A stretch of DNA of 64,000 bases from Agarophyton chilense (lineage: Eukaryota > Rhodophyta > Florideophyceae > Gracilariales > Gracilariaceae): NCBI GenBank assembly GCA_030374765.1, contig JARGXX010000095.1, forward strand, positions 2,936,462 through 3,000,461. Direction: 5' to 3'. The position numbers and the translations under genes were made by a program. The notes under the pieces were generated by a model. That model saw nothing but the letters and a program-made list of their open reading frames with translations. It was not told where the DNA came from and did not search any database. This document shows, piece after piece, positions 40,351-57,630 of this stretch. Every line of letters begins with the position of its first letter. Position 1 is the stretch's first letter.

Positions 40351-40746
40351 CAGTATAGTACGAATGCGTGGTGTACAGATTGTTTGAGGGTGTACTCGAT
40401 ATCTGTGGTGGTTGGATAAAGTTCTGTTTTGAGTGACCTGCATTCGATAAGTGTACTGGGCTTTATGTGTGTAACTGATAGAGAGAGTAGGTTGTTTCGT
40501 TACACTGTATTTTTGAGGCGGAGTTGGCGTATTTAGGGGCTGAGGTTGAGCTGGAAATAGAGACGTTTGAAAAATGCTTGTTGCTGGATTGGGTGTAATG
40601 TAACGGTCGAATATGGGGTGTTTGGCGTTATACTTAAGTATAAAGAGGAGGACATGTGTGTTTCTGTGGCAAGGAAGAGAGTTGAATGCAAAATGGAGGA
40701 AGAAGAATGGGTGTTTATTGTACCGGGTTGGAATCTAAAATCGTGC
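40351..40746. other. Spacer between satellite and helicase gene
   Basis: It holds the 3' flank of the helicase gene. I see no other gene or repeat. Confidence 0.4.
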
Positions 40747-43700
40747 CTAAATGAGTGTTGTGGTTGACTTCCACCAAGCTGCAAGGCGTAGAATGTTGGG
40801 TACGGCAAAGTGGTTGTTGTGTGTTAACCAATCATGAAACATGGCGTCTATTTCAAGGTGGGGGGGTGAGGAATCTTGGGAGGATTGGGAAATGGAGTTG
40901 AACTTGGATTGCATGCGGCCGTCAAAGAGGTGGAGTGCAATTTTGGAGCGAGTTTTGGAGCATGTTCGCCACAAGACCCATGCCAGTTGATAGAGCGAAA
41001 TGAAGATGCAGTGTCTTGTTCCAAAAGTGTGCGGTTGAGAATGAGTTTTGAGTCCCTTGCAGAATCCGAGATGGCATCGGTAGCAGGTTCCTTGAGGTGA
41101 TTTATCGAACCTGCAGTTGCGCGATATATGGTGCGGCGAAAAGCATCTGAAGCATCGTTGACGGGAATGGGGGCATGCATGATCGTCCGTCAAGTGCACT
41201 TGCGTTTTTTCGTGCAGCAAGCATGGCACACAGAGAGGGGCAAGTCGGCGGGAGAGCTCCTCGAAGTGTGACACGATTTGTTGCGGTGTTTTTCGTTCCA
41301 AGGTGTAAAAGAAGGTGGCAGAGTGCGACTGAGATTGAGAAGGAGCGACAGTGGGGGATTGAGTTGCAGCGGATGGATGCGTGGTTGTCAGCAACGGCGA
41401 TGGGGTGGAGGTGGGGGGTCGTGGTGGACGACTGGCGTGGGGTTTGGGACTTTGTGTTGGGCCGCCGTTGTTGTTGATGTTTTGGTTGTTTAAGGATGTT
41501 CTGTTTGATTGATTGGGACCGTTTTTTGGCGGCATGGGCGTTTGTGGGGAAGCGCTGGGTGACGGTGGAATGGATTGGGCGTGCTGAGAGGCAAATGGGG
41601 TAGCGGAAACGGAGCTTCGTTCCGGGGTGGGAGAGGGGGAGACGGCTGCGATGCTATTGCAAATATCGCAATTAAGAACCGAAGGAGAGAAAAGACAGAT
41701 GCCTGGTTCTTTTCCGTCCATGTGGAAATAGAGGGCGTTTCTTCGACAAACAGATTTGCATTCGACCCAATGCTGCGCTTCCAACCAACGCTCCGTGGAA
41801 AGTGCTTGGTTGTATATGCGATTGGGCTCCTCAAACGCATTTGTGTTGGATGAGGACGAAGAAAGAGTTTCCGTGACGAGTTTGAAGTAGGGCTGGAAAT
41901 AAATGGTGACGCAAGTGGATGGGTTTCCATCGCGGCCGGCCCTGCCGGCCTGTTGCGCGAGGTCGCAAAGACTCGCTACTCCACCAAAGTTGAAAACCAG
42001 GCGAACATTGGGAACGTCGATGCCCGTACCAAAAGAAGAGGTGCAAACCATGAAGAGAATGTGGTTGGTTGTGGGTGCGCTGGAAGAAGGCGGAGAGTTC
42101 CAAAGGGTGTGAGCCCGGCGTTTACGAACATCGGAGAGACCAGAATGGTACAGGAGAACAGTGACAGTAGTGGATTGTTTAAGGGCACCAAAAGAAGAAC
42201 GCGAAGCGGCGAGAGCTTCATGGACAGCTTCGGCAGCCGGGCGTGTTAACGAGAATATAAGAACGCGAGCTAGGGTTGTGTCACCCGACGAGTGAAGCAA
42301 TCGAGCCACATGCTCTTGCATGATTGAGACGCCCAGCTGAAGCAGGTATCCAAACACATCCTGAAAGTGGCCATGAGCGGCGCGAAAGCGTGTGGCACGC
42401 GAAGTGCTGGGGGCTGAGCTTAGGTGATACACGACAAAAGAAATGTTGTTTCTTGCAGTCGAAGAAGCGTACACATGCGCGTTCGGGATGTGCAGCTGCG
42501 ACAGAAGAAGGGGGCGGTCGCGCGGCGGCACTGTCGCGCTTAAAAGCACGCGAGGGATCTTTGTGGGAATATGGCCGAAGCAGTTGTGGAGGTTGGCCAA
42601 GCACGGGCGAAAGTGTTGCCATAAAAGAAATAAGTGACATTCATCGATGGCAATGCGGGCGAGGTGGTCGGCGGCGATCAGTCGCGTGGTGAACTCTGTA
42701 AAAGAAGGAAGAGAAAGTCTTTCAGCGGAAAAGATGTAAATGTCGGCAAAGGAGTGCAATCCGGGAGGGGTGGGTGTACGAGAAGCACGAAGGCCGAAGA
42801 GCTGAGCGCGCAGTTCGTATTCACTGAGCAAGGCTGTGAGAGGGGTGATGAGAACGGTGGAGTATTTGCCCTTTTCCATGAAGACGGGGAGCAGAAGAGA
42901 TAGTATTTTTCCAGATCCAGTCGGCTGGAGTAGTAGCATGTTGGAAAGCCTGTTGTACACGGCCGCTGTGTTCACAAATTGTTGGTGGGACTTGAATAAA
43001 GCGGAGTCGTTGGAAAGTGCCTGTCTTAGTGCTCGGAGCATTTCTGATGTAATATTTTCGTAGGTCACAAGCGGTTGTTGTAAGAGAGAAGCTCCACCGC
43101 GCGGTATGGCGGCTGCCATAAAAGCAGGCGGATGTGGATTGAAAGGATGAGAGGCGGCCAGGTTTAGGTTGATTTGAGAATGGGGGATCGCAGAGCGGTC
43201 AGTGGGAGGGGACGGGGTTGGCTGCGATGTATGGATGGAGCGCTTTGGTTCAGGTGTAGGTAGAACTGTGTCACTAACCGGACGTTTTCTGTGGTGTTGT
43301 TGTTGTTGTTGTTGGGTGAGGGGAGCATTAAGAAGAAGACCGAGATACTGGTGCCATTTGCTGGACCACTCGCGATATTTGGAAAGTTGAGAGTGCTGCA
43401 AACCGGATATGTCATGTGGTGTACGAGCGTAAAGAAAAGCGGCGGTGTGCGCAGAGTGGCCCGCCTGGCCATGGGCAGTGGTCAATAGCTCTTCCAAGAT
43501 GTGATCGGCTACAGAAGATGCGGTGACATTGGAAACTGTGTTGGTCATTCCCACGGTGAAGTTTCTATAGTCGTTGAAGGATATCGGGAAACCGCGTTTG
43601 CTCAAGTGAGAGCTGATTATCGAGCGGATGGTGTTTGCGGCATACGGAATTCCGCAGTTGGCGAACAGCATTTTCCAATGCATCTGGAAACAGTTTTCTC

Positions 43701-46287
43701 CGTGTAGGCAGCGGACGATATATGCTTCAAACGGACGTATCAGAGTCAAGTACATGAGCAGAAGACGGGATGTTTGGGCATCGGGAAAGCGAGCAATCGG
43801 AGTGGCGGCCCCTTTGCTGTTTCGCGTTTTCATGTAACGGCAAATGAGGACAGGCGATTTGTCGATGAGCATGAGACAACGTTGAAAGTGTTGGTCGTTG
43901 TGGATACGGTATGTCTCAATCTCTGTGCCGCGCGCAGGAGAGCCCGACGAAAGGTGTAGCGCAACCAACAGGCGTTCTTGGATTTTCTGTGCACATGAGA
44001 GCCACCTCGACAACGCATGCGTGAACATATCGGTGCCCAAAATGTCGGTTGTGGGCAGTTGTGTGCGGGGAAAGGTACCGTTTTGCTTGCGTTGCGGAAG
44101 AAACGGAGTGTGGTCGGTGTTGGAGTTGTGGGGCATGGAAGACGTGAGACAAGTGAAAACGAAAGCCATGTTTTGTTCGATAAATGGGCGGTTGTTGAGG
44201 TTGGTAAGGAAAGAAAAGCCTGGGCTTTTGTTGAAGGAGTCGTCCTGAAGTGAGTGTAGCGCGTTTGTGAAACCGGTTGGCAGAGCGTGGCCAAGAAGCA
44301 GGTCGTTGTGAAGAGTATGTTGTATTTCTTTGTGTAGAGTTAAAACCAAAGAGCCGACTTCTGAGAGGGCGAGGTGAGTGTCACGCACTATGCCGCAGGA
44401 CGGGTGAACATCACAATTGTGGAAAGAAACGAACATTTCCTCGCGAGAGGATATGGACATTGCAAGCGTGAGTGTCTTTCTGACAAACGAAAGGGCGTTG
44501 TTGGAATCAGCGTCGATTGCCGCGTCGATGGTACGCATGCGTTCTTGAACGTGAACTGTGCGTTCGGAAGCAGGGGTGGCAGGTTGCAACAGGGGAGAAG
44601 ATTTGGAGAGCACGTGCAGTTCGTGTATGGCGCAGGCACAGATGCCATATTGAAGAGCGGCGAAGAGGTGCGTCACATCTGAGGCGGCTGCAAAACGAAA
44701 GGAGGTATTGTTGGGGTCGTGAGAAATGACCGTGTCGTAAGGCTCAGGCGTGCGGTCAGACGGCAAGGGGGCAGCGATAGGCGGGTTGGGGTCGGTGCTT
44801 ATCACGCTTGCGCAAGCAATGAAGTTGCGAACGGAGAGGAGATCTAAAGAGTGGTATGGCGCTAAAGATTGAAGCAAGAAGGGCTTGAGCGCGCTATGGA
44901 CCGCTGGGCCATGTTGGGTTGGAGGAAAGGGGGCGGGGAGCTCACCAGAGGAAGACATGCGAATGGCATCCAACACGGAAGTAGTGTAGCAGTACATGAG
45001 GTCTGAGTCGGGTACGAGATGAGGGAGGTTTGCCCTTGTCCTGTAAGTAAACACAAGCAAACGGGAAATGTGTGAAGCGTAACGCTTGAGGGTTTCAGTG
45101 GAGACAGTTTTAAAAGCTGTGTCGGTGCGCTTGTTGAGGCGGTCCAAGAAAGCCAGGGAGGTCTTACTAACCAAAATGTTCACCTGAGAGAGGTAGTCGA
45201 AGATGTGGTGGGTGATGGTGCTTTCAGCGGATGTGGGCGTTGTGCCAGTTCTGGATAGTTGAGCCGCCACATCCAGATGAACATGAAGCGAGTGAAGAAC
45301 GATGTCAAACTTGGAAAAGGTGATGAAAGAATTCTTCTCCGAGTGGTGACGAAGCAAAGGGTCTGATTGCGAACAAGGAGCGCCGGTGTTGAACTTTTGT
45401 AAAAAGTGGTTAATGTGTTGAAGCGGGGGCTCGATGCCTTTGGCAGTCGTTGCCACTGGACGATGGGGTGGTTGGAGACAAACAGGCTGCGCCGGGGGGG
45501 TCTCAGGCCGTGCCGCAGGCGCCTGCGGAACCTGGAAAGTTTTGGACAAGCAGCCTATGGGTTGAGCATTGGTAACGGGGAATAAACGGCGACGAACGCC
45601 GCCGTACACTGTCTGCAAGGCAATACGGCCCGACGAGACGGTACGGTCAAGGTGTGGCTGGGCAACCGCAGGCGACATGTTGTGGCATTCGATCAGATGC
45701 GCTTGCAAACGAACGGGGTCGAGGTAGCAGAATTTGCAGAGCGGGCACTGATAGCCATTGTGAATGGCGATGTGTGCCAGGGGCGTGAGGAACGTAGAGG
45801 GCCCGGACACAAATTGAGCGTTGTGTTGGGGGCGATACTTTTGCCACACGGGGGCAACGGTAGAGTTGTTGCGCAAGGTGTGCACCTCGTGCAGGATTGC
45901 CATTGACATGGGACGTGCAGTTTCCAACGGGATGGAGTGCTGTTTGCGCAGGTGATGTTGGATTGCGCGGGCAGACGGCAGCCCACACTGGCAGTTGACG
46001 CACAACGGAAAGAACCCAATAGAATGAATACCCATATTCACAATGGTACCGAGTGCCATGATAAAAGAGGAAGAATCGTCGGCTGCATTCGTGTCGGTAA
46101 CGCGTAAGTCGGGATTGGGTTGGGCATGGGCGTCACGCGCCACGGGCGGAGGCGGTGGGGGGAGCAGGGGATTAGGGGGAGTGGGCGGTGAGATGTTCAC
46201 CGCAGCCCTCGGTGGGCTGTGCCCCGAAGAGGGGATGAACGCGGGCAAGCCATGTTCGCCGGCGGAGGATAAGCTGTTTTGCGACAT
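40747..46287 (-). CDS. RecQ-family helicase fused to a tyrosine-recombinase-like domain and C2H2 fingers (telomere-linked helicase type)
   Basis: The single exon encodes 1,846 aa from ATG 46287 (MSQNSLSS). Two C2H2 units lie near residues 94-115 (CVNCQCGLPSA...H..KQH) and 180-200 (CPLCKFCYLD...H..ECH), the layout of OrsD-like domains. Residues ~700-960 have an 'SPARGTEIETY' arginine box, 'FNDYRNF' and 'GHSAHTAAFLYAR', a pattern like R...R...GHS..TA...Y of tyrosine recombinases. After a QQQQQQ and Pro-rich linker comes a RecQ core: PTGSGK near 1121, 'IAIDECHLFLLWQHFRP' near 1212, 'LLSATVPP', 'FGTGIDVPNVRLVFNFG' and 'QQAGRAGRDG' near 1446. Near 1712 there is a CCHC knuckle (CFRCFSPHHISRNC) followed by CYRCHLGFC. 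Fungal subtelomeric helicases combine similar parts. The reading frame is intact, so the gene is probably functional or recent. Confidence 0.85.
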   Translation of the reverse strand: MSQNSLSSAGEHGLPAFIPSSGHSPPRAAVNISPPTPPNPLLPPPPPPVARDAHAQPNPDLRVTDTNAADDSSSFIMALGTIVNMGIHSIGFFPLCVNCQCGLPSARAIQHHLRKQHSIPLETARPMSMAILHEVHTLRNNSTVAPVWQKYRPQHNAQFVSGPSTFLTPLAHIAIHNGYQCPLCKFCYLDPVRLQAHLIECHNMSPAVAQPHLDRTVSSGRIALQTVYGGVRRRLFPVTNAQPIGCLSKTFQVPQAPAARPETPPAQPVCLQPPHRPVATTAKGIEPPLQHINHFLQKFNTGAPCSQSDPLLRHHSEKNSFITFSKFDIVLHSLHVHLDVAAQLSRTGTTPTSAESTITHHIFDYLSQVNILVSKTSLAFLDRLNKRTDTAFKTVSTETLKRYASHISRLLVFTYRTRANLPHLVPDSDLMYCYTTSVLDAIRMSSSGELPAPFPPTQHGPAVHSALKPFLLQSLAPYHSLDLLSVRNFIACASVISTDPNPPIAAPLPSDRTPEPYDTVISHDPNNTSFRFAAASDVTHLFAALQYGICACAIHELHVLSKSSPLLQPATPASERTVHVQERMRTIDAAIDADSNNALSFVRKTLTLAMSISSREEMFVSFHNCDVHPSCGIVRDTHLALSEVGSLVLTLHKEIQHTLHNDLLLGHALPTGFTNALHSLQDDSFNKSPGFSFLTNLNNRPFIEQNMAFVFTCLTSSMPHNSNTDHTPFLPQRKQNGTFPRTQLPTTDILGTDMFTHALSRWLSCAQKIQERLLVALHLSSGSPARGTEIETYRIHNDQHFQRCLMLIDKSPVLICRYMKTRNSKGAATPIARFPDAQTSRLLLMYLTLIRPFEAYIVRCLHGENCFQMHWKMLFANCGIPYAANTIRSIISSHLSKRGFPISFNDYRNFTVGMTNTVSNVTASSVADHILEELLTTAHGQAGHSAHTAAFLYARTPHDISGLQHSQLSKYREWSSKWHQYLGLLLNAPLTQQQQQQHHRKRPVSDTVLPTPEPKRSIHTSQPTPSPPTDRSAIPHSQINLNLAASHPFNPHPPAFMAAAIPRGGASLLQQPLVTYENITSEMLRALRQALSNDSALFKSHQQFVNTAAVYNRLSNMLLLQPTGSGKILSLLLPVFMEKGKYSTVLITPLTALLSEYELRAQLFGLRASRTPTPPGLHSFADIYIFSAERLSLPSFTEFTTRLIAADHLARIAIDECHLFLLWQHFRPCLANLHNCFGHIPTKIPRVLLSATVPPRDRPLLLSQLHIPNAHVYASSTARNNISFVVYHLSSAPSTSRATRFRAAHGHFQDVFGYLLQLGVSIMQEHVARLLHSSGDTTLARVLIFSLTRPAAEAVHEALAASRSSFGALKQSTTVTVLLYHSGLSDVRKRRAHTLWNSPPSSSAPTTNHILFMVCTSSFGTGIDVPNVRLVFNFGGVASLCDLAQQAGRAGRDGNPSTCVTIYFQPYFKLVTETLSSSSSNTNAFEEPNRIYNQALSTERWLEAQHWVECKSVCRRNALYFHMDGKEPGICLFSPSVLNCDICNSIAAVSPSPTPERSSVSATPFASQHAQSIPPSPSASPQTPMPPKNGPNQSNRTSLNNQNINNNGGPTQSPKPHASRPPRPPTSTPSPLLTTTHPSAATQSPTVAPSQSQSHSATFFYTLERKTPQQIVSHFEELSRRLAPLCVPCLLHEKTQVHLTDDHACPHSRQRCFRCFSPHHISRNCRFDKSPQGTCYRCHLGFCKGLKTHSQPHTFGTRHCIFISLYQLAWVLWRTCSKTRSKIALHLFDGRMQSKFNSISQSSQDSSPPHLEIDAMFHDWLTHNNHFAVPNILRLAAWWKSTTTLI

Positions 46288-47232
46288 AACTGAAGGAGGA
46301 TTGTTTTTGAAGACGCAAAGAAAGACACACACAAACAAACATAAACGAGTTTGCAAGCAACAGCGAAATGGACGGGTTTACTGCCGATATAGCAGTATAA
46401 GTAGTAAATCGGTGGGGCGAGGGTAATTGGAGAAAGGCGGTTTGGTGTTTTGGGGGAGGGCACGTGTGGCTTAGGGGTTTAGCAAACGGCATACTGTAAA
46501 AGGGAACCAACACGATACTATGTGGTATTGCAGGTCATTCATTCGCGGTGTTTGACTGTGGGATTGTGGGGAGGAGTTTGTCACAATAAAGCTCACTGGC
46601 CTGCGCCCCATTGAAGAGAGTGATTTTGTGTAAGGGGCGTGGTTTGCGTGCAGGGGGGGAGCGGGACGGGGAAAAAGGGCAGCGCAGAGAAGAGATGGGG
46701 CTGCGCGGTGGTGGAGTCGGGTTGGGGGAGGGCAGAAGTTTTCAGGGTGGGTTCGTATTTGTGTGTAAATGGACGGAGGTTTCGAACGAGCTGGCGCGCG
46801 ATCGGGTGCGCCAGCGGATGTTGTGCGGCAATGGGGCAACTTGTTGTGAAGCATGACGTTTTCGGAACGGCTAACTAGTGGCAGTGGTGGCGTATCGTAC
46901 ACACGTATTAGTTTGAGCACAAGCGGTGCTGCACCGCGGTTGAGCTCATATATGCATATGCGACATGTTTGACCGTTGATTTTGGAAAAATGGTGCTACA
47001 TGTGACGTGGGTAGGAGGGGTGCTATGTGTTACAGTATGAGCACTGTGTAACGTTATGATGGTGTTTGGCAAAAGAAGTCAGATTTTGCCGGGCGTGGCA
47101 GTGGGGGCCGAAGAAGAAGGTTATAGGTTTTCTGTTTTTAAAACGAATGAAGGAAGAGAGTTTGCGCGTGGTTGTTCTTAGGAGAGAAAGTTTAGTTTTT
47201 AGTTGTGTTTTACTGAGAAAGAAAAGAAACAA
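46288..47232. other. Spacer between the helicase and methyltransferase genes
   Basis: Both neighbours are on the minus strand, so the helicase promoter should be at the left part. A single telomere-like GGCTTAGGGGTTTAG sits near 46,468. ORFs of up to 149 aa on either strand show no motifs. Confidence 0.4.
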
Positions 47233-50200
47233 CTAATCTACAAGATTCACATGAAAGGTGTGTGTTTGTGGTTTTGGAACCCTGGGCCAATGAGCGTAGT
47301 CGTTGCCATAATCTATTAGAACTTCTTCTTCTCGCTCAATAGTTCGGGTGGCCACTATTGTGATGAGGTGGTAGTCTTGGATTCCTGACTTTGAGTTTTT
47401 CAAAGTGGACGAAAGCCGCGCTACCACATTTGGTGTGCGAGGGTTTGGGAGTACCTTGTCCCGTAAGGCCTGAATGTCGAGGTCCTCTGGGCGGTATTGG
47501 GCATCATTGATGATTCCGCCAACACAGAACGGGGCAGGCGTGATCCACATGGAGTGGGTTCCACGGTCTCCCGGGGTGGGCAGTCTGACAAAGTCTGGAC
47601 CTGTCACTCGGATTTCCATGGAAGTGGAGTTGAAGCGCTCCACGGTGACGGCGAGCAAACCGTTGGCATACGAAGACTGTGTGGCGGAGCGTTTGGAGAG
47701 GTCATGGTAGACGAGGGTTCCATAAAAGTAGCACACGGTGTCGCCTTCATTAAACTGGCGTGCGGCAAAGACACCGTCTCCCGCCAAGGGGTGTCGGATG
47801 TCGGACTTTTTGGTATACACTCCATGGGCATACCCTTCTATGGCAAGTAACGTAGCCGGATCGATCTGAGTGAGAAGGCCCTGTTTCTCTCGCGGCCATT
47901 CATGCACCGGTTTAGTGCGGCAAACGGCTGCAAACTCACGGTCTTTCAACAAGTTGCAGAGAAAGAAAGCGAGCGGCGCAGGAAAAATTTGGTACTGTGG
48001 CAGACCGGGAGGCGCGGTCCAAAGGTATTTCGATCGGAGGTCCTTGTTCGGTAGTGAGCGAACTAGGCGATTGAACTTGGCGATGAGATGGTGCGGCACT
48101 TCAATGTCGGTGCTGTTCTGTAAAACGGTTTTGATGAAGTGAACGACAGCATTGTGTTTTGCGTGAGCGTAACACACTGCGTCTTTCTCGCACCCCAAAA
48201 AGCGTCTGTGACCTGGGAGCTCCATGCACGCCAAAGCTGTGGAACCCGTTCCGGCAAATAAATCCACCACCATGTCGCCAGGCTGAGAATAGCGGCTTAT
48301 GAGTTCCTTGAGTAGAGCACGACTCTTCTGCTCCGGGCGTACTTTTTCAGTGACGGCGTTGTGATTGTTGGTGACAGAATGCAGGCGATTCCAACGCAGG
48401 GTCTCGCCAGCGGCTAGTCCCGGCACGTTATCAATCACGTTCTTGTAAGCCGGGTAGCGAGATGGAACGTAGTTGTAGTTGACAAGGTTTACGCGAGCCA
48501 GGTTTTCATCGTGAGTGAGCCCCGTTTTGATGCCGTGAATGGCGTACTCGGTGATGGGCAACGGCGACGTTCGCAGCCCGCGGTGGCTCCCAGTAGGATG
48601 GGAGGCGGCGCGGACGAAAACCAACGGCACAGGGTCCACCTTGAACAGCGCAGTTTGGGACTCGGAAATGCTCTTGAAGCACGACAACCACGGCCTGAAC
48701 TGGCGAATGGAGCAAAAGAGAATAAAATGGCCGCCAGGGCACAACAGCTCGCCAATAACCTGCGCCGTGCGCTTCATATCGTCTTGGGAAATGGCGTCGT
48801 GGTGGCTGTTGTGGCGGCCAGCTAAGGAACGAATGTTGTAAGGCGGGTCGGTGAGGACGAGTTGCACTGCTCCGACTGGAGATGAGGCGGTAGTTCGTTT
48901 GATAATATCCACCTGTACGAAATCTTTGAAATCGACACCGTAGAGGCGAATGTGCTTTTCCATTTCGTCCTCCGCCTCTTGTAGAGTGTTGAGAGTGGTA
49001 GTTTGGGTGAAGGAGTGCGGCGGGAGGACGCGAGTTTCGTTTACGTTGTAGGGAAGATTTGGGGGTTGGGGAGGAGATGAGGGACCAGCGGCGTTGGCGC
49101 GTTCCGACGACGACGGTAGTGGCGCTCCCGGATCAGGCGGAGGGTGCTGCTGTGACTCGTTCATAATGATGTCCACCAACTCGGCTTCCTTTTTGGCTAT
49201 TTCCACGACCGGGTTGAGGGGTTGGCCCGGAATAGGGCCGACCATGGCCATTCGAATCGGGGTCCAAAGTGGCAGACCGAACGTCGTGAAGCGGTGAGGA
49301 TACACGTCGACGGTCGAGTTATACTCAAACTGCGTCAAAGATTGCCAGCGAGCGGTTTCATCCATTTCGTATAGAAAGTCGTTGAACAGCAGGCGGTGAA
49401 GGTCGTTCAAAAACTCGGAAGCTAGCACGCGTAGATTGCGGTCAACCTCGTCGGTGTGGGACCAGGCGACGCTGTCTACTTCAGATTGGACTTTGGAAGG
49501 CTGTGCCTCCTTGGCAAATGTGGTAGTTTGCGATAACGGGGCGTAGCCTTCCTCGCGGCGTTCGAGAGCTTGGTAGGTTAGGGTGGTGCTGTCGAACAAG
49601 ATGTACGGAGCGAGCATGCGCTCCAGTGAGTCATACCCAAGATGGCGGCAGAACACATTCCAAGAGGTCACAAGCTTGTGCACGACAAAAGAAATTCGCT
49701 CGCACGTTTCGTGCTTAAAGTTTTGCAACGAAGGCAACAAAGAGGTCGCGGTTGCAACGCCGGTATTGAGGCGTTGTTTTTTGGTCTGGCGCGATTTGAG
49801 TTTCTCACGTTTGAGAGTGTAGATCATTGACAGGTACAAAACCATTTCAAAACGAGATGCCTCAACGGTAGTGCAGAATCGTGAGCGACTGTCCTTGGAA
49901 GTTTGCGACTGCGGAGGGAGAATGCGCGATTTGAGGAACGACGACAAGAGAGCCGTTTTCGGAATGAGCAAGTCGACCTGGCGGCTGGGGCGGCGGCGAT
50001 TTGTAGGGGCATTGGAAGAACGAGCACTTGCACGGGTGGTAACATTACCAGCAGCAGAAGACGATTGCTGCTCAGAAGTATTGCTTGAAGCTTGGATTTG
50101 GAGGTAGAGCTGGTACAAGTCCCTGAGACGCCGGTCGTCGCAACCATCGTCGAGGTCCACACATCTGGCCATGAGGTACACCTGAGAGAAGTAGTTGTTT

Positions 50201-50430
50201 TTGAGGAGGCTGTGTTGTATCTCCGTGTTGGTGTACTTGCCATGCTTTTCAGATGGCACGACCAAGGAGCAAACTTCCTCTGCAGCCGGCACAGAGCCTC
50301 GGTTCTGAACTGCGAAGTAAACCAAGTCCAGGTACTGGAGCGCGCGGGCGTTGGGATCGTCGGGGCGCATGCGGACGTACGCGTCGCGCAGCGGCAAGAA
50401 CAAACCAATGAGACCTTCGGAGGTGACCAT
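47233..50430 (-). CDS. Bacterial-type amino-DNA methyltransferase fused to a C-terminal SET domain
   Basis: The single exon encodes 1,065 aa from ATG 50430 (MVTSEGLIGLFL); the open frame further upstream has no ATG. Residues ~1-480 have no recognised fold and include a Ser/Arg-rich patch. The catalytic motif DPPYN is at 528-532. The AdoMet-binding motif 'DLFAGTGSTALACMEL' lies around 723-738. This order (DPPY before FxGxG) is that of beta-class N6-adenine/N4-cytosine DNA methyltransferases. From ~880 on, 'GDGVFAARQFNEGDTVCYFY', 'IINDAQYR' and 'EEEVLIDYGNDY' follow the SET pattern of lysine methyltransferases; the usual NHS is NDA here. A single protein would thus methylate DNA and possibly histones. 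The N6 versus N4 target cannot be told from the motif alone. Confidence 0.85.
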   Translation of the reverse strand: MVTSEGLIGLFLPLRDAYVRMRPDDPNARALQYLDLVYFAVQNRGSVPAAEEVCSLVVPSEKHGKYTNTEIQHSLLKNNYFSQVYLMARCVDLDDGCDDRRLRDLYQLYLQIQASSNTSEQQSSSAAGNVTTRASARSSNAPTNRRRPSRQVDLLIPKTALLSSFLKSRILPPQSQTSKDSRSRFCTTVEASRFEMVLYLSMIYTLKREKLKSRQTKKQRLNTGVATATSLLPSLQNFKHETCERISFVVHKLVTSWNVFCRHLGYDSLERMLAPYILFDSTTLTYQALERREEGYAPLSQTTTFAKEAQPSKVQSEVDSVAWSHTDEVDRNLRVLASEFLNDLHRLLFNDFLYEMDETARWQSLTQFEYNSTVDVYPHRFTTFGLPLWTPIRMAMVGPIPGQPLNPVVEIAKKEAELVDIIMNESQQHPPPDPGAPLPSSSERANAAGPSSPPQPPNLPYNVNETRVLPPHSFTQTTTLNTLQEAEDEMEKHIRLYGVDFKDFVQVDIIKRTTASSPVGAVQLVLTDPPYNIRSLAGRHNSHHDAISQDDMKRTAQVIGELLCPGGHFILFCSIRQFRPWLSCFKSISESQTALFKVDPVPLVFVRAASHPTGSHRGLRTSPLPITEYAIHGIKTGLTHDENLARVNLVNYNYVPSRYPAYKNVIDNVPGLAAGETLRWNRLHSVTNNHNAVTEKVRPEQKSRALLKELISRYSQPGDMVVDLFAGTGSTALACMELPGHRRFLGCEKDAVCYAHAKHNAVVHFIKTVLQNSTDIEVPHHLIAKFNRLVRSLPNKDLRSKYLWTAPPGLPQYQIFPAPLAFFLCNLLKDREFAAVCRTKPVHEWPREKQGLLTQIDPATLLAIEGYAHGVYTKKSDIRHPLAGDGVFAARQFNEGDTVCYFYGTLVYHDLSKRSATQSSYANGLLAVTVERFNSTSMEIRVTGPDFVRLPTPGDRGTHSMWITPAPFCVGGIINDAQYRPEDLDIQALRDKVLPNPRTPNVVARLSSTLKNSKSGIQDYHLITIVATRTIEREEEVLIDYGNDYAHWPRVPKPQTHTFHVNLVD

Positions 50431-50879
50431 CTTGTAAGACGGAACTTGGAGAGATATTCGAAGTGTCGGTGGAAAAGGCGGCGGGCGGAGATAGAGAGGT
50501 AGAAGGGGGGGTGATTGAACGAAGAGAGACTTGTTCTTTTGAAGGGGAATTCGGGGGCTGTAGTTGTGCACGGGCGTCTTGATTGAAGGGGTCGTGGGTT
50601 CGTTTTGTTCAAAGAGCGGGGCCGTTTAGGGGTTTGCGCAATGGTGAGGTTTTGGGGTTTAGCGGGTGCGTGTACGTCAAAGCCGTTCTTGATCGTAACT
50701 CTCCCCCGCAGCGGGCGCAAGAAACCAAAACAAGAAACACCGCCGAAACAACGACCAAGTTTCGAAAGGGGAACGTTGCAAGGCGGAGAGGACTGCAGAA
50801 GAGCGATAGCCGACAGCTCAAATACGGTCGGGGTCGGTTTACGTGAGATGCAGCTTGGGGGAGCAAAAGGGGGATTGGG

Positions 50880-51022
50880 ATTGCCTGCAGGCAATAAATT
50901 TCAACTGCGAATTACGGCTCATAATTTGCACCCCGATTGTTGATTTGCATTATTATTTCGCACTTTCGGGGTGCAAATTATGAGCCGTAATTCGCAGTTG
51001 ACCAAAAGTGCCCGCAGGCAAT
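50880..51022. repeat. 143-bp palindromic element, copy 1
   Basis: The ends are ATTGCCTGCAGGCA and, inverted, ATTGCCTGCGGGCA (one mismatch). Inside is a perfect 36-bp inverted repeat, 50901-50936 with 50966-51001, separated by a 29-nt loop. It looks like a MITE or a structured RNA/DNA element. Confidence 0.9.
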
Positions 51023-51650
51023 TTCACTCAATGTGAGCAAACTCGTTTCCCTTCTACCAGGCGCCGTACCAAGGCCATAGCTGCTCTATAGAGCCGATTT
51101 CCATGCCTATGTCTCCCTCTCACGGCTTTATACCGGCGGAAACGAAGGTTATTGAACCTGTTGGGGCTGAACGCCTTTTCTAGCGTCGCCCAACCTTAGA
51201 CTACCACAGGCGAATACTGTCGAATTTGAATGGTGAACGAGCTCGCGTAAAGGGTGCCGACAGATATGTTTGTGGAAAGACATGTTTTGGTGCACTTCCG
51301 AGAATTAGTAGCATCTGTATAGAAAGGAGAGTGGTGAGAAAGTTTGGGGTTTTAGAGTACTTGGTTGAAATTGAAAAGTTGAATGTACTTGAGTTGTGAC
51401 ACGGTGCAGTGAAGAAGAAGCGTTGTGGGCGAGTGAAGAGACGCAGTGAAACAACATTAGGTTTTCGGTTTTGCAATGACGCTTGAAATGGGTCTACAGA
51501 GGCGTATGCGAGAGACGGGGGGTGTGGTGAGAGTTTACGAGTGTGGCGCAAATGTAGGGAGAGGCGTGTGGGCGAAGGCGAAAAACGGGGTGTGGGATCC
51601 CAGGGGGTGTTTTTGGATGTGGGCAGACGTAGTCAAAAAGAGCGATTGGG

Positions 51651-51793
51651 ATTGCCTGCAGGCAATAAATTTCAACTGCGAATTACGGCTCATAATTTGC
51701 ACCCCGATTGTTGATTTGCATTATTATTTCGCACTTTCGGGGTGCAAATTATGAGCCGTAATTCGCAGTTGACCAAAAGTGCCCGCAGGCAAT
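51651..51793. repeat. 143-bp palindromic element, copy 2
   Basis: It looks the same as copy 1, including the 36-bp arms, and starts the second 772-bp unit. Confidence 0.9.
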
Positions 51794-52422
51794 TTCACTC
51801 AATGTGAGCAAACTCGTTTCCCTTCTACCAGGCGCCGTACCAAGGCCATAGACGCTGTATAGAGCCGATTCCCATGCCTGTGTCTCCCTCTCACGGATTT
51901 ATACCGGCGGAAACGAAGGTTATTGAACTTGTTGGGGCTGAACGCCTTTTCTAGCGTCGCCCAACCTTACACTACCACAGGCGAATACTGTCGAATTTGA
52001 ATGGTGAACGAGCTCGCGTAAAGGGTGCCGACAGACATGTTTGTGGAAAGACATGTTTTGGTGCACTTCCGAGAATTAGTAGCATCTGTATAGAGAGGAG
52101 AGTGGTGAGGAAGTTTGGTTTTTTAGAGTACTTGGTTGAAATTGAAAAGTTGAATGTACATGAGTTGTGACACGGTGCAGTGAAGAAGAAGCGTTGTGGG
52201 CGAGTGAAGAGACGCAGTGAAACAACATTAGGTTTTCGGTTTTGCAATGACGCTTGAAATGGGTCTACAGAGGCGTATGCGAGAGACGGGGGGTGTGGTG
52301 AGAGTTTACGAGTGTGGCGCAAATGTAGGGAGAGGCGTGTGGGCGAAGGCGAAAAACGGGGTGTGGGATCCCAGGGGGGTGTTTTTGGATGTGGGCAGAC
52401 GTAGTCAAAAAGAGCGATTGGG

Positions 52423-52565
52423 ATTGCCTGCAGGCAATAAATTTCAACTGCGAATTACGGCTCATAATTTGCACCCCGATTGTTGATTTGCATTATTATT
52501 TCGCACTTTCGGGGTGCAAATTATGAGCCGTAATTCGCAGTTGACCAAAAGTGCCCGCAGGCAAT
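52423..52565. repeat. 143-bp palindromic element, copy 3
   Basis: The sequence matches copies 1 and 2, but the right flank differs (TTGCCACAC in place of TTCACTCAA), so the tandem array ends here. Confidence 0.9.
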
Positions 52566-53000
52566 TTGCCACACACAACCCCCCTAAAAATTATAAAATT
52601 TGGTGTCTGTGCAGCGGTTTTTTTGGAACGGATCGCGATTGCTGTGACGCGTGTCACGCGTCGTTGGGGTTCAGGTTGCCACTACACAACCACTAGGAGC
52701 CCTTTTTAGTTTTTCGCGGAAAGGACGGAGTCGAAGTACACCCGTTTACACCCGTTTTCCCCGCCCTCACATTCCTTCCCTTTCCCGAACTGCAGCCTCT
52801 GTCTTGTTTTGTAAACGGATCAAGCGGGCGCCATCAAAGTTCGCATCAAGTCTGCACTTTTACTTGAATCATCTCCCGCGGGCCTGAGTTTCGGATCTGC
52901 CGTATTTGGCTTTGTGTTCCGCCTTCATTCGCCCGTGTCATAGTTTTTGTTGTCACGCTCTTCTGCGCGCATCTCCCCGGTTCATATTGTGTGTATTGCA
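52566..53000 (+). promoter_or_regulatory. Upstream region of the ParB-like gene
   Basis: 435 bp separate palindromic element copy 3 from the ATG at 53001. It contains pyrimidine-rich stretches near 52,755-52,800. No TATA box is convincing. The open frame reaches into this region but starts with non-ATG codons. Confidence 0.35.
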
Positions 53001-55334
53001 ATGCCATCGCGTGGAAAACATCAACACATGAAAGCAGCCGACGTCGTGTTTCTTTTGGCGAAAGGCGAAGGGGGAAACCGCCGGCGCGTCGGAACGGCTG
53101 TGTTGATGCCTGGTAGGAAGGAGGGGGAATTGTCCAGGGATATGCATGGATCTAGCCTAAAGAGCTTTGAGGCGGAAGGTGAGGATTTGGTGAAAGTTCG
53201 CAGTGTTAAGATCCTGCCGGGGTTTGACGACATTAGGTACCCGTACCGATTTGGTGGTGTGGAAGAACCGCCTGCAACACTGGGTGGGGTGTTACCGAAT
53301 TCTTTTTATTCGTGGGACCTCGGTATGATGGAGGCGATGGAAACAACAGGGGAGGTGGTTGAGGTGGATTCAGATGAATCCGCTGATGCGGTCGGAAAGA
53401 GGAGGAGAAAGTCCCCACCCCCGTCGAAGGGTACTCCCGACGTACAACGGCGTCCACCAACGACGCCCCGAACGGGAAGTCGTAAGACGAGGTCCCAGAG
53501 CCGCCAAGGGCGCGCATCGCAGCGCCCGAATGCATCTGGTTCGACTGCAACTGTTGCTGGGGCAACTGTTGCCACCGTTTCTCCTGGTACAATTCGACGC
53601 ACTGGGCGACCTCGTCTGAGGTCTCAACCAACGCCGCGCAGGGGCACATCCGTTTCACGCGCAGTAACGCCACGCCCTCGTACGCCACCGGGCGGAACGA
53701 TTGAAGTGGGTACTTCGGCCGCCAAGGCAGTGGAGGTGGATGAGGACGTCATTTTCACGGGTATGAGGTCGGGCCCGTCGAACACCCGGTCATTGTCACA
53801 AGCGGTGGAGCCTCCGAAACAGGCTGTTGCGATCCCCACCGATAGCAAGATTGAGCTGAACCACTATAGGCAGGTGAATGCTACGGTGGATATCGGCAGA
53901 ATTCGCTACGGGGAGCATCAAGTGCGGGCATTGAATGGGCAGCACAGGGAGAATTTGAAGGTTATGATGGAGCAGCAAGGTGTTTTAGGAGCGGTTGGGC
54001 GGGTGAGCGTTGCGATCGTGCTCGGCGGCAGATCAGTGGATGAGGTTCTTCAAGGCAATTCAATTACCTGTGAGTGTCTGTTGGTGGATGGGCTTCATCG
54101 TTTGGTGGTGTACCAAGACCTGAGGAACACGTCCGAGAGGTGGAAAAGCATGACCCAAGTGCTGGACGTCGTTCTGTGGTTGCGACCGGACGGGAAGGAC
54201 CTCACAAGGAAGGAGCGGTTGAGCATCGGTTGTAAGCTGAACATCATGGCAAGCAACGTGTTGGCGATGTCGTTTGCGGACCGCGTGCACACCACCGTGT
54301 CGTTCATAATGGCGTCAGTGTTGGATGACAAAGTGAAGGTCAAGTCACTGACGTCATATGCGGTGGCAGTAGCGATGCAAGAGTTTATGCTACTCGGCAC
54401 ATTGGAAACGACGCAACTTCGGCGCTACGCCGACATTGCCCTTGCTCTTGTAAGGAGCCCAGAGTTGCTGAGCAACTTTGAGAAGGTGTGCAAAGAGGCG
54501 CCGAAGCTGGGTCTGTCGCATTTGTCGGACGACCGGTTGTACACACTCGATGAAGGCGGTTTTTTGTTTTGCGTGGAGTGTGTGAAGGCTTTACTGGGTA
54601 CCCGCGGGGGTTTCGAAGGGGGGAGAAGGGGCCGGTTCGAGGATATGCGGTATTACTTTTTCAAGTTTGCGCTGCAGGTGTACTTCTTTTGCCGACAAGT
54701 GGCAGAGAAGAAGGACGTGACGGTTGCCGCCGTGCTCGACACCCAAATGAGCATTGGCGGAGTGGAAACGTCCACCGTGCGGAACTTCCTCGTGATGATT
54801 GTGTCGAAGATGGAGAACTCCGGGAGCGACCGGCAGTGGGAAAGGAAGCTGGAGCGCAAAATGAAGGAAGTGACGGACAGGATGGAGGGGTTGTTTGAAG
54901 TAGGGAGTGAGGAGAGGAGTAGGGACAGGGTCTCCAGCGAGCCTTCGGGGCAGCATCAAAGTCGGAGCGCTCCGGGACGGGCGAAGGTGAAGACTGTGGC
55001 ACCGTCGCCGGAGGTGGCTGTGTTGGACTTGGACGACGACATGAACTACAACGAGTCGCGTCCAAGGGTGAGCACGCGTAAGGGGAAAGGAAAAAGAACT
55101 GTTCCAAGGGTGGAAGAGGTGCCGGTTGGGCGTGCAAGGGGTGTGAAGCGAAAAGCTCCTGACACGAGACTGTCTCCACCCAGTCGCCGGTCGAAGAGAA
55201 CCCAACTGGCACAGGAAAGGGAGTTGTTGCAGCGGATGAAGCAGTTGCGGAGAGATACTCTGTTTGAACTGTTGGGGAACCTGGGAATCCGCGCCGAAAC
55301 TTCTCAGACGGCGAGGGTAATGAGGCATTCGTGA
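53001..55334 (+). CDS. Protein with a ParB/sulfiredoxin-like domain
   Basis: The single exon encodes 777 aa from ATG 53001 (MPSRGKHQH). Residues ~110-290 are a disordered basic region rich in Arg, Pro, Ser and Thr. Residues ~296-380 follow the ParB/Srx pattern: 'VDIGRIRYGEHQVRALNGQH', a helix 'ENLKVMMEQQGVLG', then 'CLLVDGLHRLVVYQDL', where DG-x-HR is the hallmark ligand loop. A helical region follows to ~640, then a basic tail with a bipartite nuclear-signal-like 'GVKRKAPDTRLSPPSRRSKR'. ParB-fold proteins bind nucleotides or DNA; what this one does is unknown. It lies 47 bp before the dioxygenase-like ORF on the same strand. Confidence 0.55.
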   Translation: MPSRGKHQHMKAADVVFLLAKGEGGNRRRVGTAVLMPGRKEGELSRDMHGSSLKSFEAEGEDLVKVRSVKILPGFDDIRYPYRFGGVEEPPATLGGVLPNSFYSWDLGMMEAMETTGEVVEVDSDESADAVGKRRRKSPPPSKGTPDVQRRPPTTPRTGSRKTRSQSRQGRASQRPNASGSTATVAGATVATVSPGTIRRTGRPRLRSQPTPRRGTSVSRAVTPRPRTPPGGTIEVGTSAAKAVEVDEDVIFTGMRSGPSNTRSLSQAVEPPKQAVAIPTDSKIELNHYRQVNATVDIGRIRYGEHQVRALNGQHRENLKVMMEQQGVLGAVGRVSVAIVLGGRSVDEVLQGNSITCECLLVDGLHRLVVYQDLRNTSERWKSMTQVLDVVLWLRPDGKDLTRKERLSIGCKLNIMASNVLAMSFADRVHTTVSFIMASVLDDKVKVKSLTSYAVAVAMQEFMLLGTLETTQLRRYADIALALVRSPELLSNFEKVCKEAPKLGLSHLSDDRLYTLDEGGFLFCVECVKALLGTRGGFEGGRRGRFEDMRYYFFKFALQVYFFCRQVAEKKDVTVAAVLDTQMSIGGVETSTVRNFLVMIVSKMENSGSDRQWERKLERKMKEVTDRMEGLFEVGSEERSRDRVSSEPSGQHQSRSAPGRAKVKTVAPSPEVAVLDLDDDMNYNESRPRVSTRKGKGKRTVPRVEEVPVGRARGVKRKAPDTRLSPPSRRSKRTQLAQERELLQRMKQLRRDTLFELLGNLGIRAETSQTARVMRHS

Positions 55335-55381
55335 CGGACGATGCAGTGGGTGAAGGTGTGCAGCAGGGTGGGGAGGGGTCG

Positions 55382-56893
55382 ATGAGAGATGCTGACATTG
55401 AGCGCCCATTTGACGACTCTAACCCTCCCGATGGACCGCCGCAATGGATGAGGCTGCCAGAAACTTACAAAGGGGCTTCATCGCCGGCATGGTGTAATTG
55501 GGCAAATGTGCCGCCGAGCATGTTGCCAAAGGATGTTAACGTGATTGAACACGTGCATCCTTGGCTGGACACCATCCATATGGCGTCCAAGCACCGAGCT
55601 GAATGCCTGACGGCGGAAGAGCTGAAGCTGGTCCACCATCTGGTGTTTTGGCACGCCGCGAAGGAGAAGCATGCGGCGCTGGAATCTACCAAGGTTCCGG
55701 TGTTTGGACAAGTGCTACCGACGAGCGGCAATCCGAAAAGTGAAGAGGAGCGCCTGTGGATGGCAGCGATGGAGCGGGATGAGTTGGCGTTGGAGTTCTT
55801 CGGTGAAAAGCGCAGGGAGCTGCAACACCAAGGGTTCTGCATTTTGGAATCGTTTGCAACCGATGAGGGTGCGCCGAAATGTTTGAATGGTGGGGATGTG
55901 TCTGGGAAAATGCTGCAATGGTTTGAAGACAACTTCAAGCAGCAGCCCGACTTGCGGATTGAATCGAACCGCATAAGATGGAACCCGATTATCAACGCCG
56001 GATCGGCGGTGGATGGGAAGGATCGGAATGTAGGAGTTGGAAGGTTTATGACGACCCGAGCCGGGATGGTGGATGCAGTAGAACGCGACCCGCAATTGGA
56101 GTGGCTTGTTCGGCGTCGGGCATTGTTGGATGCGCGGCTGGGCCAGATCTTGTGTGCGTTGCGATTGAACAACAACCTCAGCAACAGCATCAAGATGCAT
56201 GGGCCGGTGACGGGAGGCAGAGTTTTGTGCACGAGCTTGGAATGCCGGCGGCAAGCTCTTCACACCGACTTTCGAGGGCTGACGCACGAAGAAAGGGAAG
56301 CCGGAGGGAACCCGGGGTACTTTATGATGGTTTCTGGGCAGTTTTCGTTCCCCATATGGGTGTGCGAAGATTCGCACCGCACGGTATTCGGAAGCTTGCA
56401 GCGCCTGAAGCAGCTTTCGAAGAGCATGGAGGTGAAAAAGTTGCGAGTGCCGCCGTTCTCTGTTTTCATTGGCAGGGGAGACGTGTTCCACGCTGGAGCT
56501 TCTTACGAAGACGGGTACATGGAGCGTGAGCTGGTCCGCTACCACATGTACATGGTGCCTGACGGATATCAGCTCCCTGATGCAGTTCACCGGCAACAGG
56601 GATTCACTCCGCGGTTTGTGTCCAATGATGACGTGGACCTACAAGCCGAAGAGGAATATGAAGGACTGGGGGAACAAGGGACCAAGAATAACTCCGGGGA
56701 GGACGATGCGCAGTCGCCGATAGAAGCAGACGAGATAGAAGCGATGGAGGTGGCCAACGACGAATCGGATTTAGACGCGGAGATTTTACAATTGGTGGGT
56801 GGGGACAACAACGGCTATGCAGGGGCTGATAGCGATGGCATTCACGAGTCTGACTGGGTCATCAGTGATGAATCTGAAGCCAATAGCGCATGA
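55382..56893 (+). CDS. Probable 2-oxoglutarate/Fe(II) dioxygenase-fold protein
   Basis: The ORF has 503 aa from ATG 55382. Residues ~270-410 show a double-stranded beta-helix pattern: 'RRQALHTDF' with His294-x-Asp296, then 'VFIGRGDVFHAGASYED' with His370 as distal iron ligand, and Arg382 or Arg386 ('RYHMYM') at the position that would bind 2-oxoglutarate. The N-terminal ~250 residues are helical and not recognised. The C-terminus (from ~430) is strongly acidic. Substrate is unknown: DNA base, histone or small molecule are all possible, and TET/JBP kinship is not shown. The gap to the preceding stop is only 47 bp, unusual in a eukaryote. Confidence 0.6.
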   Translation: MRDADIERPFDDSNPPDGPPQWMRLPETYKGASSPAWCNWANVPPSMLPKDVNVIEHVHPWLDTIHMASKHRAECLTAEELKLVHHLVFWHAAKEKHAALESTKVPVFGQVLPTSGNPKSEEERLWMAAMERDELALEFFGEKRRELQHQGFCILESFATDEGAPKCLNGGDVSGKMLQWFEDNFKQQPDLRIESNRIRWNPIINAGSAVDGKDRNVGVGRFMTTRAGMVDAVERDPQLEWLVRRRALLDARLGQILCALRLNNNLSNSIKMHGPVTGGRVLCTSLECRRQALHTDFRGLTHEEREAGGNPGYFMMVSGQFSFPIWVCEDSHRTVFGSLQRLKQLSKSMEVKKLRVPPFSVFIGRGDVFHAGASYEDGYMERELVRYHMYMVPDGYQLPDAVHRQQGFTPRFVSNDDVDLQAEEEYEGLGEQGTKNNSGEDDAQSPIEADEIEAMEVANDESDLDAEILQLVGGDNNGYAGADSDGIHESDWVISDESEANSA

Positions 56894-57540
56894 TGCACCG
56901 ATGCGGTCTGTTGGAACAGTAGCATATCTAGATACCTTGGAATAAAGTACTCGTTTCTATCCTAAAACCTAACCTTTCATCGTGCTTCTTCCTCTACTTG
57001 TACTAGTAATTCTGGTAGTACAAGTATATGTGCTACTAATACTATTGGTAATCAGCATAAGTAAGAGGTAGTAACACACATAGTACTACATCAGTGGTTG
57101 TTTTAGTCATACGTAGAACATTTTCTGAATACGGTATTCCAAGTAGATGTGGCGCTTGCAACGGCGCCACTGTATGCAGTATAAAACCGTACGATGAGTA
57201 CACGCGATTGCAACGGGGGGGAACGAGTCAAGGAGGCGGTTTTGTGTTGTGAGGAATATAGAAGTGTTACGAAATGGGGCCATTTGACGATTGCAGGCGT
57301 AAATGTGGTTTTCAAAAAGGTATCTTATATCGAAAGTTACCCGTACTTGTCCGTGATGATTGTATTAAACGGTAAAGACATCACAGCGTACACGCGTATT
57401 GAGGTAAGTCGACGTACTGCAGCTCCGCGTAAAAGTAATGCAAGCACATGCGTGCATATGTAAAGCAATGGCCACTTGAATGCGCGGTGGCACCCTAGCG
57501 CGTGATGTTTACCATGTGCTGTGAAGGCTATGTGTTTTAG
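56894..57540. other. Spacer with one possible small exon
   Basis: An 89-aa ORF starts at ATG 57194, 12 bp after a TATAAAA-like sequence. After 'TAYTRIEV' it has an AG|GTAAGT donor at 57403/57404. The segment 'GVNVVFKKVSYIESYPYLSV' looks protein-like, but no family is recognised and no second exon was found. Confidence 0.3.
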
Positions 57541-57630
57541 AATACTTGGTTGAAGACGTAATATGGCGTGTGGGGGGCCCAGGGGGGTGTTTTAGGATGT
57601 GGGCAGACGTAGTCAAAAAGGGGGATTGGG
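57540..57630. repeat. Truncated copy of the 771-bp unit's end
   Basis: AATACTTGGTTGAA followed by a GGCGTGTGGG...CCCAGGGGGGTGTTTT stretch and GTGGGCAGACGTAGTC match the right part of the tandem unit with an internal deletion. It leads straight into palindromic element copy 4. Confidence 0.75.

What the first reader, a model, noticed from the sequence alone, without database searches (positions are those of the whole stretch)
40747..56893. Candidate subtelomeric chromatin-modification island with recombinase-helicase
Four large, intact, intronless ORFs lie together: RecQ plus tyrosine-recombinase-like helicase, beta-class DNA methyltransferase plus SET, ParB/Srx-like protein, and a probable 2OG-Fe(II) dioxygenase. 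They sit between G-rich satellites, and 143-bp palindromic elements occur inside and at the right edge. Nearby transposons are decayed while these frames are open, which suggests maintenance or recent arrival. The set could write, erase and propagate marks and move or amplify itself at chromosome ends. Co-function is inference.
Basis: partly seen in the sequence, partly recalled or inferred. Interest (0 to 1): 0.88.

Follow-up and report, generated by a model that had tools for sequence, protein, structure and literature searches.

The report
Chromosome-end mobile element with epigenetic cargo
The genes are the load of a roughly 20-kilobase mobile element that appears to be added, always the same way round, onto broken or worn chromosome ends of this genome, and it shares its DNA- and chromatin-modifying genes with an unrelated transposon family inside the chromosomes.

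Summary
The ORFs are real, but there are three genes, not four: ORF3 and ORF4 are halves of one gene, split here by a frameshift and whole in ten other copies. The locus is one copy of a repeat found at dozens of contig ends. The element starts at 39,150 with a base-precise end, (C)CTATATATATTACAGG. Of 100 listed copies of that end (143 counted), 80 could be judged; all 80 are end-proximal and point the same way. In 41 junctions read, this end is joined to 31 different sequences; 19 of the 41 are telomere-side-truncated copies of the element itself. In 18 of 21 junction sites with known continuation, 2-4 nt are shared. That is the architecture of terminal addition (HeT-A, Terminons), but no reverse transcriptase was found among its scanned ORFs; ORF1 is an OrsD-RecQ telomere-linked helicase with tyrosine-recombinase-like motifs. 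A telomerase gene and TTT(T)AGGGG telomeres exist too. The methylase-SET and ParB-like/2OG genes form a divergent cassette around palindromes; the 2OG gene is also carried by Plavaka transposons inside chromosomes (49 of 57 loci). Mark writing and erasing is plausible; the "island" is a mobile element. How ends are copied is inference.

The parts
39150..59904 (.). One near full-length copy of the chromosome-end element (about 20.8 kb). Inner end 39,150 is base-precise; outer end 59,902-59,904 is less certain (the same boundary is seen in one other copy, C32, joined to a different family end).
39150..39239 (+). Inner terminal sequence (C)CTATATATATTACAGGTTGTAAGTGTGGGC..., shared at 88% and 82% with two other element families starting at 59,905 and 61,510
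40061..40327 (+). Telomere-like G-rich tracts (GGTTTAGG-type) inside the element, G-strand pointing to the chromosome end
40747..46356 (-). ORF1, 1,869 aa: OrsD zinc finger + tyrosine-recombinase-like motifs (R809, K843, R931, H967, Y976) + RecQ-type helicase + Cys/His-rich C-terminus; telomere-linked-helicase kind
47233..50571 (-). ORF2, 1,112 aa: N6/N4 DNA methyltransferase + SET domain
50880..52565 (.). Three copies of a 143-bp palindrome at 771-772-bp spacing, between the divergent ORF2 and ORF3/4 genes
52947..55334 (+). ORF3, first part of the ParB-like/2OG gene (ParB-like domain tentative)
55331..56893 (+). ORF4, second part of the same gene; HxD...H...R motif set of 2-oxoglutarate/Fe(II) dioxygenases; separated from ORF3 by a frameshift in this copy
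57631..57773 (.). Fourth 143-bp palindrome, downstream of the ParB-like/2OG gene
59905..61509 (.). Truncated element of a second family (inner end 88% like family A over 90 bp, then unrelated)
61510..61791 (.). Truncated element of a third family (inner end 82% over about 65 bp)
61792..62861 (.). Family A copy truncated after about 1.07 kb, joined directly to the next inner end
62862..64000 (.). Start of a further family A copy, cut by the contig end

Best explanation
The locus is one copy of a roughly 20.8-kb mobile element that is added to chromosome ends. Shown: its inner end is precise to the base; every copy that could be judged faces the same way; the same end is joined to many unrelated sequences, often to telomere-side-truncated copies of itself; and most joints share 2-4 nt that start with C or T. 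Inferred: an eroded or broken chromosome 3' end finishing in ...YC(T) pairs with the 3'-terminal AGG of a template made from the element (C:G or wobble T:G) and is extended, so that a copy starting ATATATTACAGG is laid down on the end; its outer part is later lost by erosion or was never copied, and the next copy is attached there. Telomeric repeats, presumably made by telomerase, exist beside this. The element-coded OrsD-YR-RecQ protein is the likely helper (end unwinding, processing or strand joining); the polymerase is not identified. The methylase-SET protein and the ParB-like/2OG protein, transcribed away from palindromes that could serve as ParB-type binding sites, most likely set and remove DNA or histone marks on the element itself, to escape host silencing.
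For: Polarity: of 100 listed inner ends (143 counted; reversed control 0), judges 81 as end-proximal (farthest 89.5 kb) in the same polarity and 0 as contrary; I drop one of the 81 (C63, length unknown), leaving 80 of 80. Precision and diversity: 41 junctions, 31 classes of adjoining sequence; 19 of 41 flanks are family A itself cut on its telomere side, 19 of 19 head-to-tail; others are unrelated, such as a Plavaka relic (window) and, read by eye, a gypsy RNaseH-like frame (L114). Shared bases: the base before CTATATAT is C in 33 and T in 10 of 43; where the intact continuation is known, 18 of 20 sites share >=2 nt and 13 share >=3 nt, chance about 3e-11 with the first base granted; a 21st site (C13) shares 1 nt. 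Shared terminal 65-90 nt in otherwise unrelated families. Cassette: Plavaka transposase same strand upstream within 20 kb of 49 of 57 interior 2OG loci, another arrangement at 1; the one interior copy read in full has transposase, methylase-SET, palindromes, ParB-like/2OG. dN/dS 0.39, 0.17, 0.36, 0.09.
Against: No reverse transcriptase or polymerase matched among the 12 ORFs of 39,150-59,904 that were scanned, so the copying enzyme must act in trans or be the host's. The ParB-like/2OG gene is antisense to ORF1/ORF2, awkward for one RNA template. Two of 20 sites (L112, L116) show no shared bases and C13 one; at C10 two copies disagree (3 or 1 nt). Some junctions recur on several ends (31 classes of 41), so ordinary recombination between ends also spreads copies. 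A telomerase gene and telomere tracts are present, so the element is not needed as a telomere. One OrsD match lies inside a chromosome (C4, with a stop). The outer end rests on two boundaries. The tyrosine-recombinase and 2OG folds could not be modelled; the only integrase profile hit was 1 of 12 sequences at E 0.33.
Confidence: 0.68

Rival explanations
1. Terminal exchange by the element's tyrosine recombinase: a crossover between the inner end (core YCT) of one chromosome end and a YCT site near another end replaces everything distal. Wrong-way exchanges give dicentric or acentric chromosomes and are lost, which would also explain the single polarity.
For: ORF1 keeps the R, K, R, H, Y set expected of tyrosine recombinases; the shared YC/YCT(A) could be a crossover core.
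Against: It predicts reciprocal products (distal element parts without their inner end next to chromosome-specific DNA); these were not searched for systematically, and little of the ends could be read. The T/C choice at the first base and the mostly 2-3 nt overlap seem short for a crossover core. The fold is unproven.
Confidence: 0.2
2. Plain subtelomeric amplification by homologous recombination or break-induced copying, as with yeast Y' elements.
For: The 25 scored ORF1 copies (the window's own among them) are 96-100% identical to the window's; some junction classes are shared by different ends, and C10 holds two repeats with identical joints.
Against: Homologous recombination does not by itself create one base-precise end next to 31 classes of sequence, nor short shared YC/YCT at the joints.
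Confidence: 0.08
3. A host gene cluster kept at chromosome ends to mark subtelomeric chromatin.
For: Purifying selection on all parts; location at ends.
Against: Precise mobile-element end, truncated head-to-tail copies, and the 2OG gene with Plavaka transposases in chromosome interiors.
Confidence: 0.04

Closest known systems
Telomere-linked RecQ helicases (TLH; Ustilago UTAS, Agaricus and other fungi)
   Same: OrsD domain and RecQ-type helicase, subtelomeric, many copies per genome; ORF1 relatives include Ustilago, Schizophyllum and Puccinia proteins; U. maydis TLH/UTAS with OrsD in PMC10532341 (passages), Agaricus subtelomeric RecQ in PMC7473861 (passages)
   Different: In the passages read they are described as genes or repeats at chromosome ends, not as part of an element with a precise attaching end and epigenetic cargo
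HeT-A/TART/TAHRE of Drosophila
   Same: Uniform polarity, constant proximal end, distally truncated head-to-tail copies on any end sequence (recalled)
   Different: Those are retroelements that serve as telomeres without telomerase (recalled; PMC9498494 passages); here no RT was found in the scanned ORFs and a telomerase gene is present
Terminons and telomeric Penelope-like elements
   Same: Giant (Terminons), end-attached, truncated head-to-tail arrays, accessory genes (PMC6431247 passages); telomeric PLEs beside telomerase in Mycosphaerella (PMC4522978 passages)
   Different: They carry an RT, a hammerhead motif (Terminons) and telomere repeats at the 3' end; none was found here
Yeast Y' elements
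   Same: Helicase-bearing repeat on many chromosome ends in one polarity (recalled)
   Different: Y' spreads by recombination (recalled); no base-precise end on unrelated flanks
Plavaka/EnSpm giant transposons with TET/JBP or ParB-methylase cargo
   Same: Related methylase-SET and ParB-like/2OG cassette in this genome; [quoted passage not shown] TET/JBP in fungal Plavaka (PMC12730594 passages)
   Different: No Plavaka transposase matched in the end element; the 2OG protein did not match any 2OG profile
Cryptons and Starships (tyrosine-recombinase DNA elements)
   Same: A tyrosine-recombinase-like protein as presumed mover of a large element
   Different: Those insert at internal target sites (recalled); judged copies of this element lie at ends and the recombinase fold is unproven

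Membership tests
Telomere-linked RecQ helicase (ORF1) | RecQ-type helicase core | tested here: met
   Pfam DEAD and Helicase_C 5.4e-10; alignment profile hits RecQ5/RecQ1/BLM structures at about 1e-76 to 1e-74
Telomere-linked RecQ helicase (ORF1) | OrsD zinc-finger domain | tested here: met
   PF12013 E 1.8e-7; 8 of 12 aligned sequences
Telomere-linked RecQ helicase (ORF1) | location at chromosome ends | tested here: met
   38 OrsD matches genome-wide: 29 expected position and polarity, 8 not judged, 1 contrary (interior, one stop)
Tyrosine recombinase | catalytic R-K-xxxR-H-Y set (recalled) | tested here: met
   R809, R931, H967, Y976 invariant and K843 nearly so in 12 aligned sequences
Tyrosine recombinase | profile or fold similarity | tested here: inconclusive
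   Phage_integrase in 1 of 12 at E 0.33; hhalign to lambda Int or Cre negative, but lambda Int against Cre fails too; structure prediction off
HeT-A-like telomeric retrotransposon | constant proximal end, one polarity, truncated distal ends | tested here: met
HeT-A-like telomeric retrotransposon | gag or reverse transcriptase in the element | tested here: not met
   no match in 12 scanned ORFs of 39,150-59,904; an RT acting in trans was not sought
Terminon / telomeric PLE | PLE RT, hammerhead ribozyme, terminal reverse-complement telomere repeats | tested here: not met
   no RT match, no hammerhead at E<=1 in 39,000-64,000, end sequence is ATATATAGG
Plavaka transposon | Plavaka transposase | tested here: not met
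   no match in the scanned ORFs of the end element; present upstream of the interior 2OG gene at 49 of 57 loci
2OG-Fe(II) dioxygenase (TET/JBP type) | HxD...H...R motifs (recalled) | tested here: met
   H311xD313, H387, R403 kept in P0038 and in the interior copy
2OG-Fe(II) dioxygenase (TET/JBP type) | match to a 2OG or Tet_JBP profile | tested here: not met
   no 2OG match at E<=10 for the fused protein, interior copy and P0038 in Pfam, nor for ORF4, interior copy and P0038 in PHROGs and NCBIfam
ParB-like domain | profile similarity | tested here: inconclusive
   ORF3 none; P0019, a relative of ORF2, matches phrog_1033 (ParB-like) at E 0.014; ORF3 region against such N-termini P 0.008 by hhalign, probability 4.9%
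Starship / Crypton | insertion at internal target sites, with target on both sides | tested here: not met
   80 of 80 judged inner ends are end-proximal in one polarity; the far side of most copies could not be read

The most novel reading that the evidence does not exclude
A telomere-attached class of mobile elements that is not a retroelement: the telomere-linked helicase (OrsD + tyrosine recombinase + RecQ) is the mobility enzyme, and worn chromosome 3' ends ending in YC(T) are extended on an element template with a fixed AGG-3' end, which would be a way of building on chromosome ends distinct from telomerase and from known telomeric retrotransposons, and would explain why such helicase genes sit at chromosome ends in fungi and here alike. 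The element also carries its own mark-writing and mark-removing genes with palindromic binding arrays.
Probability: 0.33. Interest if true: 0.93.

Novelty: new variant of a known kind. Interest (0 to 1): 0.8.

Why it matters
End-attaching elements known to me are retroelements. An end-attaching element headed by a telomere-linked helicase, in a genome that still has a telomerase gene, would give the subtelomeric RecQ genes of fungi and other eukaryotes a concrete role and a testable junction rule (YC/YCT). The sharing of one epigenetic cassette between a chromosome-end element and interior Plavaka transposons suggests that mark-writing and mark-removing genes travel as a module between unrelated movers.

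Tried and rejected
Helitron: the T-type start (TCTATATAT) resembles recalled Helitron 5' ends, but no Rep was matched in the scanned ORFs and the preceding base is C or T within shared bases, not a constant A|T target; rejected. Viral origin: IMG/VR scans with the methylase alignment (best 80 of 168 relatives kept) and with ORF1's alignment (51 loci) gave matches confined to the methylase or to the helicase region, and P0038 gave none. Loss of telomerase: rejected, TERT domain found in a 1,158-aa open frame and a contig end in TTT(T)AGGGG repeats. Hammerhead or other ribozyme at the inner end: none convincing; the miRNA-family hits are below their gathering scores and lie on the palindromes. 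Profile comparison of the recombinase region with lambda Int and Cre: uninformative, as the control pair also failed. Solved structures for the 2OG part: no meaningful hit. Whole-genome search with the methylase-SET protein did not complete, so its copy number is unknown. Interior copies read in full: one only (C117); a second could not be fetched. Dropped rows: two C73 pieces were merged, and's rows only those of 44-66% identity that are not end copies were entered (C107, 44%, left out). In one search one of 81 rows (C63) is dropped in the report.
Full report
What is there. The window is the last 64 kb of a 3.0-Mb contig of a 79.8-Mb assembly in 135 contigs. ORF3 and ORF4 match nothing in Pfam at E<=1. 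In ten subtelomeric copies elsewhere they form one frame of 1,233-1,335 aa, while several other end copies carry stops or split frames; the window copy is split by a small frameshift.

A repeat at chromosome ends. ORF1 has 25 scored copies (of 853 first-look candidates), each at 96% identity or more, 22 of 25 without stops, near contig ends and transcribed inward, except that this cannot be judged on the short contigs C32, C76 and C19. Of 25 fetched loci, the window's own included, 22 still adjoin the 3' end of ORF2. OrsD domains were sought genome-wide with all 50 candidates scored: 38 matches, 29 at ends in the expected polarity, 8 not judged, 1 contrary (interior, with a stop).

A base-precise inner end. 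The repeat starts at window 39,150 with (C)CTATATATATTACAGGTTG. The same start lies at 61,792 and 62,862 in the window, and in C96, C13 and C10. A 30-base pattern of it, with up to two mismatches, is counted 143 times, its reversed control never. Of the 100 places listed, judges 81 as end-proximal (farthest 89.5 kb) in the expected polarity and none as contrary; 9 lie on short contigs and 10 on contigs of unknown length. One of the 81 (C63) also lies on a contig of unknown length, so I count 80 of 80. The 100 places fall on 41 contig-and-strand combinations.

Many partners. I read 41 inner junctions; they fall into 31 classes of adjoining sequence. In 19 of the 41 the flank is family A itself, cut at different points on its telomere side, and in 19 of 19 it has the same orientation. 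Others are unrelated DNA, such as a Plavaka relic in the window. Homologous recombination copies existing joints (some classes are shared by several ends) but does not explain so many different joints at one exact base.

Shared bases. The base before CTATATAT is C in 33 and T in 10 of 43 junctions. For 20 junction sites (same-site repeats counted once) the uninterrupted continuation of the flank is known from another copy: it begins with the same 2 or more bases in 18 and 3 or more in 13. Two share none (L112, L116). At the C10 site the two known copies give 3 and 1; I counted 3. The C13 junction, checked in the window, shares one, giving 18 of 21. With the first base granted, 18 of 20 has a chance of about 3e-11. 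I read this as pairing of a chromosome 3' end...YC(T), with a template end...AGG-3', including a T:G wobble. A recombinase crossover at a YCT core is the main rival.

Telomeres. (TTAGGG)4 is absent. (TTTAGGGG)3 is counted 1,461 times (797 + 664), control 0; only the first 100 places are listed, on C1 and C2, and these lie near contig ends in telomere orientation. Contig C1 ends in over 700 bases of TTT(T)AGGGG repeats, with a second block of about 1.3 kb starting 5.3 kb in. A telomerase RNA-binding domain lies in a 1,158-aa open frame. So telomerase-type telomeres seem to coexist with the element, which itself carries telomere-like tracts in the right orientation.

Other families. Inner ends at 59,905 and 61,510 share only the last 90 and 65 bases or so with family A (88% and 82%). 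A common terminal signal on unrelated bodies suggests one machinery acting in trans. No reverse transcriptase matched among 12 ORFs of 39,150-59,904 scanned with Pfam (the four named; eight smaller ones, where one at 58,912-59,394 shows a weak C2H2 finger). The outer limit rests on two boundaries only.

ORF1. Fifteen proteins match, Ustilago, Schizophyllum and Puccinia among them. In an alignment of ORF1 with eleven of them R809, R931, H967 and Y976 are invariant and K843 nearly so, the set recalled for tyrosine recombinases. No profile confirms the fold; the profile test was insensitive, since lambda Int against Cre failed too. The helicase is RecQ-like.

The cassette. ORF2 and the ParB-like/2OG gene point away from each other across three 143-bp palindromes at 771-772-bp spacing. 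Half-sites are counted 362 times in the genome; among the 100 listed is a run of twelve palindromes on C31. A second family of the 2OG gene lies inside chromosomes: 49 of 57 loci sit downstream of a Plavaka transposase on the same strand within 20 kb and eight do not; another arrangement within 20 kb is seen at one locus. In the one interior copy read in full, transposase, methylase-SET (35% identical), unrelated shorter palindromes and ParB-like/2OG gene (38% identical) lie together, the last two genes divergent as in the window. Relatives of ORF2 (P0001) and of the 2OG gene (P0038) in the protein database are each listed on four contigs with the same longest length, 20,528, which suggests but does not prove linkage. 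A ParB-like N-terminus is indicated weakly in some ORF2 relatives. dN/dS between the window and C96 is below 1 in all parts.

Prior work, as seen. [quoted passage not shown] the cited Bostrychia paper is not held). TET/JBP genes in fungal Plavaka and other transposons (PMC12730594, passages). Tyrosine recombinases in Plavaka-flanked giant repeats of Amoebidium, with hits in dinoflagellates or red algae (PMC11244446, passages). Terminons (PMC6431247, passages). Telomeric PLEs and RecQ genes in Mycosphaerella (PMC4522978, passages). Ten library searches (search listings) showed me no description of an end-attaching element with a telomere-linked helicase and this cargo; the library lacks most subscription papers.

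Verdict.

Noticed in passing
window 5450-9865 (-): CPSF1/RSE1/DDB1-family gene (three Pfam matches, E 6.6e-66 to 2.4e-49), an ordinary host gene at the inner side of the window.
   Followed up: no
window 11652-12683 (+): Alpha-kinase domain ORF (E 2e-14).
   Followed up: no
window 17751-23510 (-): Ty3/gypsy-type polyprotein in two abutting open frames (protease, RT, RNase H; integrase).
   Followed up: no
L111 (C135 right end): A roughly 3.06-kb tandem spacing (three 67-base matches to window 59,841-59,907) lies outward of an element truncated near 40,332.
   Followed up: no
L203 (C21:636401-643400): The ParB-like/2OG gene recurs six times at roughly 5-kb spacing near the right end of C21, with partial or damaged 2OG parts; the stretch read shows palindromes between copies.
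   Followed up: partly
C31:718490-727073: Twelve 143-bp palindromes in a row at 773-bp spacing ahead of a ParB-like/2OG gene.
   Followed up: no
L149 (C1:1-7000): About 4.2 kb of DNA without similarity to the window lies between two telomere-repeat blocks at the C1 left end, possibly another end element.
   Followed up: no
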